From Persephonella sp. (GTDB taxonomy: Bacteria; Aquificota; Aquificia; Aquificales; Hydrogenothermaceae), in assembly GCF_015487465.1 (NCBI RefSeq), contig NZ_WFPS01000049.1, positions 1-48,275 on the forward strand: a stretch of DNA of 48,275 nucleotides, in the 5' to 3' direction. The translations under genes were made by a program, and so were the position numbers. Under the pieces are notes generated by a model. That model was not told the origin of the DNA and ran no database searches. It was given only the letters and a program-made list of their open reading frames with translations. Of this stretch, positions 19,278 through 23,959 are shown piece by piece (position 1 is the stretch's first letter; the number at the start of each line of letters is the position of its first letter).

Positions 19278-20101
19278 AAAACACAAAAAGGGACGGTTCT
19301 CCCGTCCTCTCTGTAAAAAATCTTAAGGTGTCTTTTGAAATAGAAAATAAAACTGTGGAAGCTCTTAAGGGAATATCATTTGATATATACCCTAAAGAGA
19401 TTGTAGCCCTTGTTGGTGAGTCAGGTTCAGGTAAAAGTGTTACATGCTATTCCATATTAAATATACTACCGAAAAATGCATCTGTGTCGGGACAGATCTT
19501 TCTAAAAGAGGGAGATAAGTTAACAGATATACTTACCTGTGACAGTAAAAAACTGAGAGATATAAGAGGAAATAAGGTTTCTATGATATTTCAAGAGCCT
19601 TCAGCCGTGCTTAATCCCCTTATGAAGGTTGGAGATCAGATTGTTGAAGCAGTGACGGCTCACAAAAAGGTTCCATACAATAAGGCAAAAGAGCTGGCAG
19701 TTAAATCTATGGAAAAGGCAAGGATCCCTGATCCTGAAAGAAGGTTCTACCAATACCCCCATGAACTTTCAGGGGGGCTTAAACAGAGGGTAGTTATAGC
19801 TATAGGCATTGCAAACAATCCTTTAATTTTACTTGCAGATGAGCCAACCACAGCACTTGATGTTACAGTTTCTGCCCAGATTTTGAAACTTTTTGAGGAT
19901 CTAAAAAATCAGCTTGGCGTCAGTATTTTGCTTATAACCCATGATCTTGGAATAGTTGCAGAGATTGCAGACAGGGTTCTTGTTATCTACAAAGGACAGA
20001 TTGTTGAAGAAGGAGATGTTTTTGAGATATTTGAAAATCCGAAACACCCTTACACAAAGAAACTCCTAAAATCAAGACCTACACTGGAAAATATCATTTA
20101 A
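19274..20101 (+). CDS. ABC transporter ATP-binding protein, oligopeptide (DppD/OppD) type
   Basis: 275 residues. Walker A is GESGSGKSV (48-56), the Q-loop segment is MIFQEPSAVLNPL, the signature is LSGGLKQRVVIAIG, Walker B is LLADEPTTALD, and the switch is ITHDLG. The end (FENPKHPYTKKLL) is typical of peptide and nickel importers, but the protein stops soon after and lacks most of the usual C-terminal cysteine-bearing extension of OppD. No permease, binding protein or second ATPase gene is adjacent. It overlaps the dsbC-like gene by four bases, and by four bases the convergent gene at 20098. Confidence 0.93.
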   Translation: MKNTKRDGSPVLSVKNLKVSFEIENKTVEALKGISFDIYPKEIVALVGESGSGKSVTCYSILNILPKNASVSGQIFLKEGDKLTDILTCDSKKLRDIRGNKVSMIFQEPSAVLNPLMKVGDQIVEAVTAHKKVPYNKAKELAVKSMEKARIPDPERRFYQYPHELSGGLKQRVVIAIGIANNPLILLADEPTTALDVTVSAQILKLFEDLKNQLGVSILLITHDLGIVAEIADRVLVIYKGQIVEEGDVFEIFENPKHPYTKKLLKSRPTLENII

Positions 20102-20958
20102 TCTTTTTTGAAAATTGCCTTAGAGATCTGTGATAAAAAGCTAAGAGAATAAGGAATAGTTTTTTTCAGCAGATCGTAAAGTTTCTCAGGGTCAAATTCC
20201 TTCGTGGGATCTGCAAATATATTCCGGTGTTTTAAAAGGATTTCCAGATTTTCTGCCGTTTCTTTGTCTATAAAACCTTCCTTGTGAAGCTGTTGGAAAC
20301 AACTTTTTTCTACTTTTTTACCTGACTTTCTTAGTATGTGCCTGCATATCCAGAGTAAGCTGTCAATCAAAACAACAGAAAAATACCGTGCCCTGTCAAT
20401 AAAAAGGGGTGTAGAGGCAAATTCTTCTTTAGGAAAGTTAAGGAAGTTTGAGATTTTTCTGACAGAGGATTTAATGGCTTTTGCATGATCCTGCAGTTTT
20501 TTTACATTAACAGGTATAGAAAGTTTTGGCTCTTTTGCCTTTATCTCCTTTACCACAGAGGAAAGCTCTTTTATAAACCGTTCTAAAAGAGTTGTTGTTA
20601 TCTGTGATCCGATGATGTATATCTCTTTTGGGGTGTATTTGTAGTTGCTTTCCATAACGCCTTTAATATAAGATGAGAAATCAATCAGCACCCTGTTTAT
20701 TTTTTCTGAAAAGAGCTGTTCCTTTACTATTTTTTCAACACAGCCCCCTTTGAGTTTTTCCCCTGTAACCTCTTTAAGCAGATGGCAACATATCTCCTCA
20801 AGCTCGTTATAAGCAGATATAAGATAATACTGTGTTCTGTCGGGATACATCGGAATTTTTAAAAACTGTTCCTCCCCGTTTTTTAGTATTTTGTCTGCTT
20901 TTTTTAAAAACAGCACAAGTTTAGACGCCTTATCGTTTAGAAACTGAATATCTAACAT
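20098..20958 (-). CDS. tandem degenerate HepT/HEPN-like repeat protein, function unknown
   Basis: 286 residues made of two homologous halves, about 7-137 and 155-285. They align at an offset of 148 residues and, after one gap, 147: LNDKASK/LQDHAKA, PDRTQYY/IDRARYF, ICCHLL/ICRHIL and GGCVEKIVKE/KSCFQQLHKE. The second half resembles HepT (DUF86) toxins: helical pattern, a short KEGFI segment, then HRNIFADPTKEFD where HepT has RNxxxHxY. The catalytic His and Tyr are replaced (R245 retained, His to Asp, Tyr to Thr). The first half lacks the whole motif. No MntA-type nucleotidyltransferase gene is next to it. Its ATG overlaps the upstream stop, so it is coupled to the TM-hairpin gene. It is probably a structural or RNA/protein-binding helical protein, not a ribonuclease. 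Confidence 0.82.
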   Translation of the reverse strand: MLDIQFLNDKASKLVLFLKKADKILKNGEEQFLKIPMYPDRTQYYLISAYNELEEICCHLLKEVTGEKLKGGCVEKIVKEQLFSEKINRVLIDFSSYIKGVMESNYKYTPKEIYIIGSQITTTLLERFIKELSSVVKEIKAKEPKLSIPVNVKKLQDHAKAIKSSVRKISNFLNFPKEEFASTPLFIDRARYFSVVLIDSLLWICRHILRKSGKKVEKSCFQQLHKEGFIDKETAENLEILLKHRNIFADPTKEFDPEKLYDLLKKTIPYSLSFLSQISKAIFKKD

Positions 20959-22211
20959 TAATTCTCCTCTGACAGCTCAAGATCAAGATCTTTTTTGATA
21001 TTAGAAATGACCAGTATATGTTTTTCTATGTTGTTTCTCAGATTTATAAGGAAGTTTTCAAACTCCTTTATAGTTTTTGTTTCTCTGTTCACTATGGAGA
21101 TAGCAATCTGTTCCGCTTTTATTGTTGATCTGAGAATTTTTTCTTTCATTGTTGATAACAGCATTTCGGTGCTTTTTTCAACATCATCTTTTATGTTCTC
21201 CCTGACCTGCTTTATATATTTTTTTATGTAAAATCTGTTAAAAAATGCTGAATCAAAAAAGGAGTAAATGCTTATAAAAAATCCTGTAAGAACTATAAGT
21301 TCTTTTATCCCTTCAGGTAGAGGAAGAAAAAGACCGATTATAAAAATTCCAAGACCGACTGCTAAAATTCCCAGAAATCTTGGACTTTCCAGGTTTCCTA
21401 TAATAATATCTATCCTGCTTTGATCTGCACCTAAATCCCTGAAATGCTTTCTTATGTCCGGTAAAGTATAGTGAACTACATGTCTGGTAAGCTGTATTTC
21501 ATCAAGACTGTTTTTTATTTCGTCTATCACTTTTTGTTTTGCTTTACTGCTTTTTATATACCCTCCAATATATTTTGTTATCTCTTTAAAAAGTTCATTT
21601 TTGTATTTTTCAAAAATTTTGGATAATTTTTCTGTTCCTTTTTGGGAGAGGTATATATTAACTTCCCTCTCATAGGTTTTTAGAAAGTTGATAATCCCGT
21701 TGTAGTCGTCGTATCTGTAAATAAAGTGGAGTTTTTCTTTCAGCTTTTCAATGTCAGGTTTTATTTCCTTTTTTATCTCTTTATCAAGCATGCTGTCTAT
21801 CTTTGCTTTCACATTAGCGATGTAAGACTCAAAAGGCAGATTTTCTTCTTCCCCTGATATTTTGTGTATAAATTCATTTATCTTTTTTACTGTTTTTGAT
21901 AGATTTGAAACAGCTTCTGAGATTGCACTGTTAATGTTTTCAATCTCTGTGTAGTATATCTCCTCAGTATCTCCTGATAACGGTTTTTCAAGGAGGTTTA
22001 CATACTCTGTGATCATTTTGTTAAGTCTTGAGTATTCAAAATCCCTAAAGAATATCCCAAACTCCTCTGATTCTGGGATGGATTCAATAATAGGGAGGTT
22101 TTTTACAGCATTGCTTAAATCTTTCTTTATAAGGTTGAGCTCCTGTATAAGATCTTTTTTTATCTTATATATTCTGCTCAGTTTTAACCGGAGATTGGTT
22201 TCTTTATCCAT
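20958..22211 (-). CDS. coiled-coil protein with a central membrane hairpin, function unknown
   Basis: 417 residues, unrecognised. A long, highly charged, mostly helical region (1-275) precedes two close membrane helices (about 279-298, GILAVGLGIFIIGLFLPL, and 303-322, ELIVLTGFFISIYSFF). A second charged helical arm (about 328-417) completes it. There is no P-loop or other enzymatic motif. The arm-hairpin-arm arrangement recalls the stalk and membrane paddle of bacterial dynamin-like proteins, but without a GTPase domain; this is an architectural analogy only. A minus-strand TATAAT (22242-22237) could serve as its -10 box. It is coupled to the tandem HepT-like gene and divergent from lpxC. Confidence 0.8.
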   Translation of the reverse strand: MDKETNLRLKLSRIYKIKKDLIQELNLIKKDLSNAVKNLPIIESIPESEEFGIFFRDFEYSRLNKMITEYVNLLEKPLSGDTEEIYYTEIENINSAISEAVSNLSKTVKKINEFIHKISGEEENLPFESYIANVKAKIDSMLDKEIKKEIKPDIEKLKEKLHFIYRYDDYNGIINFLKTYEREVNIYLSQKGTEKLSKIFEKYKNELFKEITKYIGGYIKSSKAKQKVIDEIKNSLDEIQLTRHVVHYTLPDIRKHFRDLGADQSRIDIIIGNLESPRFLGILAVGLGIFIIGLFLPLPEGIKELIVLTGFFISIYSFFDSAFFNRFYIKKYIKQVRENIKDDVEKSTEMLLSTMKEKILRSTIKAEQIAISIVNRETKTIKEFENFLINLRNNIEKHILVISNIKKDLDLELSEEN

Positions 22212-22261
22212 TTCTTTTTACCTGTTTTTGTCTAATATTATATTCCAGTTTGTTTGGACAA

Positions 22262-22294
22262 TTTGCAAAAAAACATATTTTTTCTTTTGCAAAA
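22262..22294. promoter_or_regulatory. paired TTTGCAAA palindromes upstream of lpxC
   Basis: TTTGCAAA (22262-22269) and TTTTGCAAAA (22285-22294) are perfect palindromes whose centres lie 24 bases apart, separated by T-rich DNA. They fall about 80 and 56 bases before the predicted lpxC start site, suitable for an activator, and close to the start of the divergent 417-residue gene. Confidence 0.45.
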
Positions 22295-22319
22295 TACTTG
22301 TTTTAAGGCTCTTTTTTTA

Positions 22320-22335
22320 TGGCATATATCTTGCT
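22320..22335 (+). promoter_or_regulatory. sigma-54-type -24/-12 promoter for lpxC
   Basis: TGGCATATATCTTGCT matches the sigma-54 consensus TGGCAC-N5-TTGCW at all key positions except the final C of the -24 element, with the exact GG-to-GC spacing. Transcription would start near 22346, leaving about 26 bases before the lpxC ATG. A TATAAA at 22336-22341 could instead be a sigma-70 -10 box, but it has no good -35 partner. Confidence 0.55.
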
Positions 22336-22371
22336 TATAAATACAACAGTAATACAAAACGGAGAGGAAAA

Positions 22372-23253
22372 ATGTTTTGTATAAATCAAAGAACAGTGAA
22401 AAAAGAGATAAAAATAAAGGGTATAGGGCTTCATTCAGGCCAGCCTGTTAATCTTAAATTAATACCAGCAGAGGCAAATGAAGGTATTAATTTTGTTAAG
22501 GAAGGTAATATAATTCCTGCTGTTATAGATTATGCAACAGGTTTTGAGTTCTCAACAACCTTGTCAAAAGGAAACACCAGGGTGTCAACCGTTGAGCATT
22601 TGATGTCTGCCCTTTATTTTACAGGTATTGATAACATTTATATAGAAATTGATGCTGAAGAGGTGCCGATTCTTGACGGCAGTGCGATAAAGTTTGTTGA
22701 GAAGATAAAACAGGCAGGAATAAAAATTCTGAATGAGGAAAAGATGTATGCTGTTTTAAACAAAGAGATAGCAGTTTATGAAAATGGAAAGTTTATAAAG
22801 GGAAAACCTTCAGACACATTTACTGCCACATACCACGCCCAGTATAACAACAGAATAATTGGTAATAGGAAATACACATACTCTAACCTTAAGGCTGATT
22901 TTGAAAATGTGGCAAAGGCAAGAACTTACTGTTTCCTTGAAGAGGTTGAGATGCTTCAGAAGATGGGGCTTGCTAAGGGGGGATCCCTTGATAATGCTGT
23001 TGTTTTTGAGGGGGATTCGGTGCTGAACCCTGGAGGTCTTAGATTTGATGATGAACCTGTAAAGCATAAAGTGCTTGATCTGATCGGTGATCTTTATCTT
23101 CTTGGTTTTCCATTAATAGGAGATGTTTATTCCTACAAAGGAGGACATAAATTAAACGCCGCTTTTGTAAGAAAGATTATTGATGAAAAAGCCTTTGATC
23201 TAAAATATTCCTCACAGATAGGTTTTAACAATCAGGGTAGTTTAGTTGCTTAA
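22372..23253 (+). CDS. lpxC: UDP-3-O-acyl-N-acetylglucosamine deacetylase
   Basis: Zinc enzyme for the first committed step of lipid A synthesis, showing that the cell has an outer membrane with lipid A. 293 residues. Motifs: KGIGLHSGQPV, STVEHLMSALYF (zinc ligand His76), AEEVPILDGSA, KGGSLDNAVVF, KHKVLDLIGDLYLLG (His and Asp ligands) and YKGGHKLNAAF. The start is the ATG after GGAGAGG; the reading frame is open further upstream, but that part runs antisense to another gene and is not conserved. The 3' end overlaps hemD by 29 bases. Confidence 0.97.
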   Translation: MFCINQRTVKKEIKIKGIGLHSGQPVNLKLIPAEANEGINFVKEGNIIPAVIDYATGFEFSTTLSKGNTRVSTVEHLMSALYFTGIDNIYIEIDAEEVPILDGSAIKFVEKIKQAGIKILNEEKMYAVLNKEIAVYENGKFIKGKPSDTFTATYHAQYNNRIIGNRKYTYSNLKADFENVAKARTYCFLEEVEMLQKMGLAKGGSLDNAVVFEGDSVLNPGGLRFDDEPVKHKVLDLIGDLYLLGFPLIGDVYSYKGGHKLNAAFVRKIIDEKAFDLKYSSQIGFNNQGSLVA

Positions 23254-23959
23254 GGTTTTTGATCAGATGATCAAGGGTAAATTTCTGTGGAATAACGTCA
23301 GGATTTATTCCCATTTTTAATAAAGCCTGAGCTGTTGTGGTTCCTATTACAGCTGTTTTTGTTTTTTTCAGCAGATCTTTCCAGCTGTCAGGAAATATCC
23401 TAATGAAGTTTTCAAATGTGGAGGGGCTTGTGAATATTACGGCATATATCTGACCTTTTTCAAGCTCTTTTTTTATCTGGTCTTTATTTTCAGGTGTATT
23501 GGGAACTGTTTTATAAACAGGAAGGGGTTTAATCTCAAGGTAACTTTCCAGCTCATCAATAAGGGTGTTTAACCCTTCAACAGGTCTTACGGCAACAGCT
23601 TTTTTACCTTTAAACTCTTTTTTTGATTTAATTAAGTTAGCAACACCTTCTGCCGAGTAAATCTCAGGTATGATCACATTTTTTATCCCTTTTTTCTTAA
23701 GGGCTTTTTCTGTTTTTTCGCCTGTGGCGATAATAGTTTTCCCTTTCAGATGGTTTATGTCTATTTCACTTAGGAGAAACTCTACAGCGTTTTGACTTGA
23801 GAATATTACAATATCTGCTTTTACCAGATCTTTTTTGTCAAAGCTCACCTTTTCAAACCTTATAGTTGGAAATAATATAGGCTTAAAACCCTCCTTTTCT
23901 AAAAGCTGTGCAGTTTTCCTTGCCTGTTTTTCTTCTCTTGTGATTAAAACTTTTTTCAT
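23225..23959 (-). CDS. hemD: uroporphyrinogen-III synthase
   Basis: Closes and rearranges hydroxymethylbilane into uroporphyrinogen III for haem, sirohaem and cobalamin. 244 residues. The family is poorly conserved, but VLITREEKQARKTAQLLEKEG, IVIFSSQNAVEFLL, IATGEKTEKALKKKG, IFTSPSTFENFI and TAVIGTTTAQALLKMG give the expected two-lobed pattern. It is the last gene of the ten-gene minus-strand run, with its ATG overlapping the K+ channel stop by one base. Confidence 0.93.
   Translation of the reverse strand: MKKVLITREEKQARKTAQLLEKEGFKPILFPTIRFEKVSFDKKDLVKADIVIFSSQNAVEFLLSEIDINHLKGKTIIATGEKTEKALKKKGIKNVIIPEIYSAEGVANLIKSKKEFKGKKAVAVRPVEGLNTLIDELESYLEIKPLPVYKTVPNTPENKDQIKKELEKGQIYAVIFTSPSTFENFIRIFPDSWKDLLKKTKTAVIGTTTAQALLKMGINPDVIPQKFTLDHLIKNLKQLNYPDC

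What the first reader, a model, noticed from the sequence alone, without database searches (positions are those of the whole stretch)
22250..22372. Sigma-54-type promoter and paired TTTGCAAA palindromes before lpxC
TGGCAT-N5-TTGCT at 22320-22335 fits the sigma-54 consensus with exact spacing, and two TTTGCAAA palindromes lie about 24 bases apart at roughly -80 and -56. If real, lipid A synthesis would depend on an enhancer-binding activator, which would be unusual for an essential envelope gene.
Basis: partly seen in the sequence, partly recalled or inferred. Interest (0 to 1): 0.55.

Follow-up and report, generated by a model that had tools for sequence, protein, structure and literature searches.

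The report
Sigma-54 promoter driving lipid A gene
In this heat-loving bacterium the gene for the committed step of outer-membrane lipid A synthesis carries a conserved sigma-54 promoter with an activator site, and a second gene, probably also for lipid A, carries the same arrangement, so an essential envelope pathway appears to be run by a system usually reserved for optional responses.

Summary
Comparison supports the promoter: a match with at most 2 mismatches lies upstream of lpxC in 34 of 34 genomes examined of the same family and 28 of 28 of a second family. It is found in 0 of 4 genomes of a family without detected rpoN, and in 4 of 21 of another family, those 4 being the only ones there with an NtrC4 orthologue at the cut-off used. 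The distal palindrome is conserved in 33 of 33 same-family genomes, in 25 of them 56-59 bp upstream of the -24 element. The proximal palindrome is private to this genome, so the "pair" is not the unit. The own genome has two composite matches: lpxC and a gnnA-like gene followed by an aminotransferase gene, probably for lipid A sugar supply. Likely mechanism: NtrC4 binds about 80 bp upstream of the start and activates sigma-54 polymerase at both. Sigma-54/NtrC4 control of lpxC was reported for Aquifex aeolicus (recalled; paper not held): a new member of a known kind, with gnnA as an apparently new target.

The parts
22212..22371 (.). intergenic region between a divergent 417-aa ORF and lpxC, holding the regulatory elements
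22254..22277 (+). extended activator site: across the family mostly TT at -8/-7 and G at -5 before TTTGCAAA, then mostly NNNNCANA after it; degenerate form of TTTGCA-N4-TGCAAA
   Evidence: position counts over 33 same-family lpxC sites and 21 gnnA-like sites
22262..22269 (.). distal TTTGCAAA, core of the conserved activator site, 58 bp upstream of the -24 element
   Evidence: 33 of 33 same-family genomes have TTTGCAAA within 130 bp, 25 of 33 at 54-60 bp
22286..22293 (.). proximal TTTGCAAA, private to this genome; possible accessory site or chance
22320..22335 (+). sigma-54 promoter, -24 (TGGCAT) and -12 (TTGCT) elements
22346..22346 (+). predicted transcription start (12 nt downstream of the C of the -12 TTGC)
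   Evidence: inference from general sigma-54 promoter geometry (recalled); no TSS data
22361..22367 (+). GGAGAGG, ribosome-binding-like sequence
   Evidence: read directly
22372..23253 (+). lpxC, UDP-3-O-acyl-GlcNAc deacetylase, 293 aa
   Evidence: TIGR00325 283.6 bits over cut-off 187.25; PF03331; start chosen from the conserved N-terminus; the mechanical ORF opens further upstream
20958..22211 (-). divergent 417-aa ORF, no Pfam match; not the constant neighbour of lpxC across the family

Best explanation
lpxC is transcribed from a sigma-54 promoter at 22320-22335 (predicted start about 22346). The response regulator and enhancer-binding protein NtrC4 (G000:C65:11528-12886) binds a site built on TTTGCA-N4-TGCAAA, here in degenerate form around the distal TTTGCAAA at 22262-22269, and its AAA+ ring opens the closed RpoN polymerase complex. 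The same protein and promoter type drive a gnnA-like gene followed by a DegT aminotransferase gene (G000:C23), so the regulon couples supply of the lipid A sugar precursor to the committed deacetylation step. Shown: the elements, their conservation, the two composite matches in the genome, and the co-distribution with NtrC4 and RpoN. Inferred: that NtrC4 itself binds this site, that transcription starts here, that the second gene pair is GnnA/GnnB, and that RpoN is therefore needed for growth.
For: Promoter: <=2 mismatches of 11 fixed positions in 34 of 34 f1 and <=1 in 28 of 28 f2 lpxC upstreams; 4 of 21 f5, 0 of 4 f3, 0 of 1 f4. rpoN is in the own genome and found in 112 of 136 genomes of the phylum; all 7 f3 genomes are among those without a match. 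Within f5 the NtrC4 orthologue is in the 4 genomes of g26 (442-497 bits; other hits in the 15 f5 genomes searched at the lower threshold <=339; no other f5 genome at E<=1e-105), and exactly those 4 have the promoter. The tree puts f1, f2 and g26 proteins in one clade (support 100/99) apart from the other f5 EBPs and from the five other own EBPs that entered it. The member L270 (G001) equals PDB 3dzd over 366 aligned residues, and the own DBD matches the DNA-bound structure 4fth best. The last helix reads DLSSLYRK/DLSNLYRK or close to it in the NtrC4 members and differently in nine other f5 EBPs shown. Site: 33 of 33; it stays with lpxC while the upstream neighbour gene changes. Composite pattern: 31 of 41 family genomes match, 0 control matches, two places in the own genome, both with 58 bp from TTTGCAAA to TGG. 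Exact TTTGCA-N4-TGCAAA occurs once per genome in 13 of 14 genus genomes, and each of these 13 places lies about 110-120 bp before the gnnA-like hit. Sigma-70-like sites near lpxC are not above chance.
Against: No expression, TSS or binding data for this organism. Seven of 66 genomes with the promoter lack a full-length NtrC4 at the cut-off: G086, G094, G067, G006, G004, G038, G024. G024, G038 and G004 show short fragments that could be a broken NtrC4 (not verified); the other four showed only paralogue-level hits; G024 and G038 are listed at 99% completeness. In f2 the TTGCAA-rich site lies inside hemD coding sequence (G001), and 4 of 4 f3 genomes, without detected rpoN, keep TTGCAA in the corresponding stretch, so coding constraint may explain it. 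My recollection of the published A. aeolicus site positions (-145, -85) does not fit that palindrome, about -185 from the ATG. None of 16 f2 gnnA-like upstreams has the promoter at <=1 mismatch (two have a 2-mismatch match) and none has TTTGCAAA, so the second target is family-specific. Eight of 29 f1 gnnA-like upstreams lack an exact TTTGCAAA (two of them, G072 and G073, have the variant palindrome). In f1 the lpxC site is not at the usual distance in 8 of 33 genomes (nearest copy 68-109 bp).
Confidence: 0.82

Rival explanations
1. The sigma-54 promoter is real but the TTTGCAAA site belongs to another EBP or to a separate repressor or nucleoid protein, NtrC4 being a bystander.
For: Six other strong EBP genes in the genome. 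TGCAA-N2-TTGCA motifs also sit upstream of a TATAAT-like sequence in several f5 genomes without NtrC4 (by eye). G001 has the exact palindrome beside a gene whose promoter looks sigma-70 by eye. The co-distribution of the other own EBPs was not tested.
Against: Within f5 NtrC4 tracks the promoter; in 25 of 33 genomes the site sits 56-59 bp from -24 as an enhancer might; the recalled literature names NtrC4 at A. aeolicus lpxC.
Confidence: 0.14
2. lpxC also has a housekeeping sigma-70 promoter, and the sigma-54 promoter is an auxiliary, conditional one.
For: lpxC is expected to be essential; one 9-of-12 sigma-70-like site at 22217-22244; several f5 genomes show a TATAAT-like sequence before lpxC (by eye).
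Against: The sigma-70-like count in 21900-22600 is not above shuffles (2 against a mean of 2.9) and that site ends 128 bp upstream of the ATG.
Confidence: 0.25
3. Chance resemblance: -24/-12 and palindromes arise by AT-rich composition.
For: In the window alone the counts are at chance level.
Against: Conservation across genera with shuffled controls and 0 control matches in 41 genomes.
Confidence: 0.02

Closest known systems
NtrC4 / sigma-54 control of lpxC in Aquifex aeolicus (Vidangos et al. 2014, J Mol Biol 426:3553; seen only as a reference in PMC10590331 and PMC11407668; content recalled)
   Same: same gene, orthologous activator, -24/-12 upstream of lpxC (G001: TGGCACGTGATTTGCA)
   Different: here the site is intergenic and 58 bp from the -24 element; in G001 the TTTGCAAATTTGCAAA is about 160 bp away inside hemD; the recalled site positions could not be matched; the gnnA-like target was seen in this family only
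DVU2934 - lpxC in Desulfovibrio vulgaris (PMC3333781, passages)
   Same: a response regulator with lpxC as its single mapped target, in a study where 22 of 29 DNA-binding response regulators are NtrC-family
   Different: different phylum; regulator sits in an operon with a histidine kinase and an HD-GYP protein; its motif was not compared here
Predicted sigma-54 promoter of lpxC in Leptospira interrogans (PMC12655853, passages)
   Same: putative sigma-54 promoter upstream of lpxC; alr is on the same list
   Different: prediction only; other EBPs (EbpA, EbpB)
GnnA/GnnB pathway to UDP-GlcNAc3N (PMC7663294, passages)
   Same: Gfo/Idh/MocA oxidoreductase gene next to a DegT aminotransferase gene; that paper gives the GlcN3N backbone for Aquifex pyrophilus lipid A
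   Different: identity not proven here: best NCBIfam match UDP-GlcNAc 3-dehydrogenase at 56 bits, far below its cut-off of 450; that known GnnA/GnnB belong to these two protein families is recalled

Membership tests
sigma-54-dependent promoter | GG at -24 and GC at -12 with fixed spacing (TGGCAY-N5-TTGCW) | tested here: met
   exact match
sigma-54-dependent promoter | conserved at the orthologous place | tested here: met
   34 of 34 f1 (<=2 mismatches) and 28 of 28 f2 (<=1)
sigma-54-dependent promoter | rpoN in the genome | tested here: met
   G000:C68:12960-13430
sigma-54-dependent promoter | transcription starts about 12 nt downstream of -12 and needs RpoN plus an ATPase activator | not testable with these tools
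   no expression data
NtrC4 regulon | NtrC4 orthologue in the genome (receiver, AAA+, Fis-type HTH) | tested here: met
NtrC4 regulon | conserved upstream activator site shared by targets | tested here: met
   lpxC and gnnA-like gene
NtrC4 regulon | same DNA site as the one published for A. aeolicus lpxC | tested here: inconclusive
   paper not held; recalled positions do not match the palindrome in G001
NtrC4 regulon | NtrC4 binds the site and activates in vitro or in vivo | not testable with these tools
   inference from co-distribution only
GnnA/GnnB | Gfo/Idh/MocA dehydrogenase gene followed by a DegT-family aminotransferase gene | tested here: met
   PF01408 and PF01041 in the own genome; an aminotransferase motif follows in 24 of 29 f1 loci long enough to look, 1 further locus too short
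GnnA/GnnB | curated equivalog score for UDP-GlcNAc 3-dehydrogenase | tested here: not met
   56.1 bits against a cut-off of 450, an archaeal model; so it is called gnnA-like only

The most novel reading that the evidence does not exclude
In this family (Persephonella and kin) RpoN and NtrC4 form a dedicated, growth-essential lipid A regulon that sets the flux through both precursor supply (gnnAB) and the committed step (lpxC). The wiring of lpxC is old in the phylum and is replaced by a sigma-70-type promoter where NtrC4 or RpoN is absent. Sigma-54, in most bacteria dispensable (general knowledge, recalled), would then be essential here.
Probability: 0.45. Interest if true: 0.65.

Novelty: new member of a known kind. 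Interest (0 to 1): 0.45.

Why it matters
PMC3333781 (passages) says that in E. coli and Pseudomonas lipid A synthesis is regulated primarily through LpxC protein levels. A transcriptional switch through sigma-54, which cannot fire without an ATP-driven activator, is another logic for an essential gene and predicts that rpoN and ntrC4 are essential in these thermophiles. It also suggests a function for NtrC4, known to me mostly as a structural model protein (recalled), and gives a second candidate target, gnnA, that would make the regulon a coherent lipid A pathway.

Tried and rejected
Rejected: the two TTTGCAAA as a conserved pair. Rejected as clean evidence: the f2 site upstream of lpxC, because in G001 it lies in hemD codons (...FANLQ..., PF02602) and 4 of 4 f3 genomes without detected rpoN keep TTGCAA in the like place. 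Rejected: sigma-54 control of gnnA as phylum-wide. Considered and set aside: the site serving the divergent ORF; across the family the neighbour changes but the site stays with lpxC. A first search for the aminotransferase motif found 0 of 29 through my own wrong regular expression and was repeated with a corrected one (24 of 29). Nine sequences did not enter the EBP tree because of my P-loop pattern: one own EBP (L051), three f3 and two f5 EBPs, one f2 NtrC4 (L279) and two paralogues (L280, L281). The long own-EBP branches L045, L047 and L048 are unsurely placed. Literature: NtrC4+lpxC and Vidangos+lpxC gave no held paper; NtrC4+Aquifex aeolicus gave 13, lpxC+RpoN+NtrC+promoter 8, lpxC+sigma54+lipid A+promoter 9, Persephonella+sigma-54 none. 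No search was aimed exactly at sigma-54 control of gnnA; (at least 2 of GnnA, GnnB, lipid A, Aquifex; 177 papers, 12 listed) is the nearest, so "new target" means only that I saw no report.

Samples: of 124 genomes with an lpxC match in the phylum I took 89 upstream stretches (35 of 38 f1, 28 of 55 f2, 4 of 7 f3, 1 of 2 f4, 21 of 22 f5), chosen from the hit list before seeing the upstream sequence. One (G066, 42 bp) was dropped for shortness, and G090 too for the site count. Of 30 f1 gnnA-like loci one (G068, 27 bp upstream) was dropped.

Full report
Observation. The window is contig C49 of a 1.83-Mb, 89-contig genome. Its closest named lpxC relatives are Persephonella MAGs, the two nearest 91-92% identical at protein level. 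The -24/-12 sequence and both palindromes are exactly where stated. Taken alone they are unremarkable for the window, so the case rests on comparison. f1 to f5 are the unnamed families of the genome collection, f1 the window's own.

Promoter. The exact consensus TGGCAY-N5-TTGCW occurs 7 times in the genome against 0 for the reversed control. Upstream of lpxC, the best match in the last 150 bases has <=2 mismatches in 34 of 34 genomes of f1 (17 exact), <=1 in 28 of 28 of f2 (17 exact), <=1 in 4 of 21 of f5, and none at <=3 in 4 of f3 and 1 of f4; shuffles reach <=2 in 1-8%. In f1 it begins 46-74 bases before the assumed start codon. Sigma-70-like sites in 21900-22600 are not above chance.

Activator site. 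In f1, TTTGCAAA lies within 130 bp upstream of the -24 element in 33 of 33 genomes, in 25 of 33 at 54-60 bp (all 25 at 56-59; shuffles 4.5% and 0.3%); in the other 8 it lies 68 bp or more away. Position counts show a longer site: TT at -8/-7 (31 and 32 of 33), G at -5 (24 of 33), C at +12 (25), A at +13 and +15 (28 each). The site at the gnnA-like gene is cleaner, close to TTTGCA-N4-TGCAAA. The proximal TTTGCAAA of the window has no exact counterpart in the other 33 genomes checked. The site stays with lpxC although the upstream neighbour differs between genera (a 417-aa divergent ORF, a HepT-like ORF, others; most names by eye). In 21 of 32 genomes no ORF of 80 aa or more covers it; in 7 a mechanically extended divergent ORF does, and in 4 an antisense or lpxC-frame ORF does.

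Second target. TTTGCAAA-N40..70-TGGYAY-N5-TTGC is found in 31 of 41 f1 genomes with 0 control matches, and at two places in the own genome: lpxC and C23:10681-10753, both with 58 bp from TTTGCAAA to TGG. The second precedes a Gfo/Idh/MocA oxidoreductase gene (PF01408) followed by a DegT aminotransferase gene (PF01041). The best NCBIfam match of the first is UDP-GlcNAc 3-dehydrogenase, far below its cut-off. With the GlcN3N lipid A backbone given for Aquifex pyrophilus (PMC7663294, passages), gnnA/gnnB is the likely identity; this is an inference. All 29 usable f1 gnnA-like upstreams have -24/-12 with <=2 mismatches (12 exact), and 21 of 29 have TTTGCAAA. Five of the 8 without it are the five loci where the aminotransferase motif does not follow (G066, G067, G094, G095, G096). 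The exact TTTGCA-N4-TGCAAA occurs once per genome in 13 of 14 genus genomes and not in G089, each time about 110-120 bp before the gnnA-like hit (positions compared by hand). None of 16 f2 and two f3 gnnA-like upstreams has TTTGCAAA or the promoter at <=1 mismatch. Of the seven exact sigma-54 matches of the genome, only lpxC and the gnnA-like gene have TTTGCAAA within 200 bp.

Activator. The genome has seven strong Sigma54_activat matches (238-253 bits) and two weak ones. One (C65:11528-12886) has PDB 3dzd as its best solved relative (417 bits against 360 for the next), and its DNA-binding domain matches 4fth and 3e7l best; 4fth is the A. aeolicus NtrC4 DBD bound to DNA (PMC11407668, passages); that 3dzd and 3e7l are NtrC4 is recalled. 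The G001 orthologue equals 3dzd over 366 aligned residues, which with its contig length (recalled to be that of A. aeolicus VF5) identifies the reference. The tree groups f1, f2 and g26 (f5) proteins in one clade at 100/99, apart from other f5 EBPs. The last helix carries DLSSLYRK/DLSNLYRK-like letters in NtrC4 members and different ones in nine other f5 EBPs. ntrC4 of this genome overlaps the end of alr by 4 bases.

Co-distribution. In 88 genomes: NtrC4 and promoter 59, neither 22, promoter without detected NtrC4 7, NtrC4 without promoter 0. The seven exceptions were searched again at a lower threshold: G024, G038 and G004 show short fragments that may be a broken NtrC4 (not verified), the others only paralogue-level hits. 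These counts are not phylogenetically independent; the informative contrasts are f5 (g26 against the rest) and f3 (no rpoN in 7 of 7). Other EBPs were not tested in the same way.

Literature. From memory, Vidangos et al. 2014 reported two NtrC4 sites upstream of A. aeolicus lpxC and called it the first evidence for sigma-54 regulation of lpxC. I saw only the citation; the paper is not held. The positions I recall (-145, -85) do not fit the TTTGCAAATTTGCAAA of G001 (about -185 from the ATG), so I do not claim that it is the same site. Desulfovibrio DVU2934 targets lpxC (PMC3333781, passages) and a Leptospira lpxC sigma-54 promoter is predicted (PMC12655853, passages).

Verdict. What appears new is the depth of conservation, its absence where NtrC4 or RpoN is missing, and the gnnA-like second target.

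Noticed in passing
L216:1160-1175 (G001:C1:1313159-1313174): The second exact TTTGCA-N4-TGCAAA of the A. aeolicus-like genome (the other is at lpxC) lies between a divergent porin-like gene (by eye; no Pfam match) with a TTGACA/TATAAT-like promoter and an ion-channel gene (PF07885, TrkA_N).
   Followed up: partly
f5 lpxC upstreams, e.g. L071, L074, L075, L077: These genomes without NtrC4 carry TGCAA-N2-TTGCA about 80 bases before lpxC, followed by a TATAAT-like sequence (by eye): perhaps a different regulator on a sigma-70 promoter.
   Followed up: no
G106, G107, G111 (f3): No rpoN detected, yet each keeps an EBP-like match to NtrC4 at 264-275 bits.
   Followed up: no
L115:398-2862: alr and ntrC4 overlap by 4 bases; an alr-like frame precedes ntrC4 in 11 of 12 genus loci looked at, hinting at a link to the cell wall.
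   Followed up: partly
window 20098-22211: A HepT-like protein gene (PF01934) and a 417-aa ORF run divergently from lpxC; similar ORFs by eye recur upstream of lpxC in several genera of the family.
   Followed up: partly
window 23225-23253: lpxC and the convergent hemD (PF02602; ORF 23225-23959) overlap at their 3' ends; in G001 hemD instead precedes lpxC in the same direction and its end covers the -24/-12 element.
   Followed up: partly
G097:C1:393910-393981: rpoN shows only a 24-residue match in a single-contig genome: frameshift, assembly error or decay; its lpxC promoter has 2 mismatches.
   Followed up: no
L146, L147, L173: The composite activator-promoter pattern also precedes a porin-like gene in two f1 genomes and a small lipoprotein-like gene in a third (by eye), suggesting a wider envelope regulon.
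   Followed up: no
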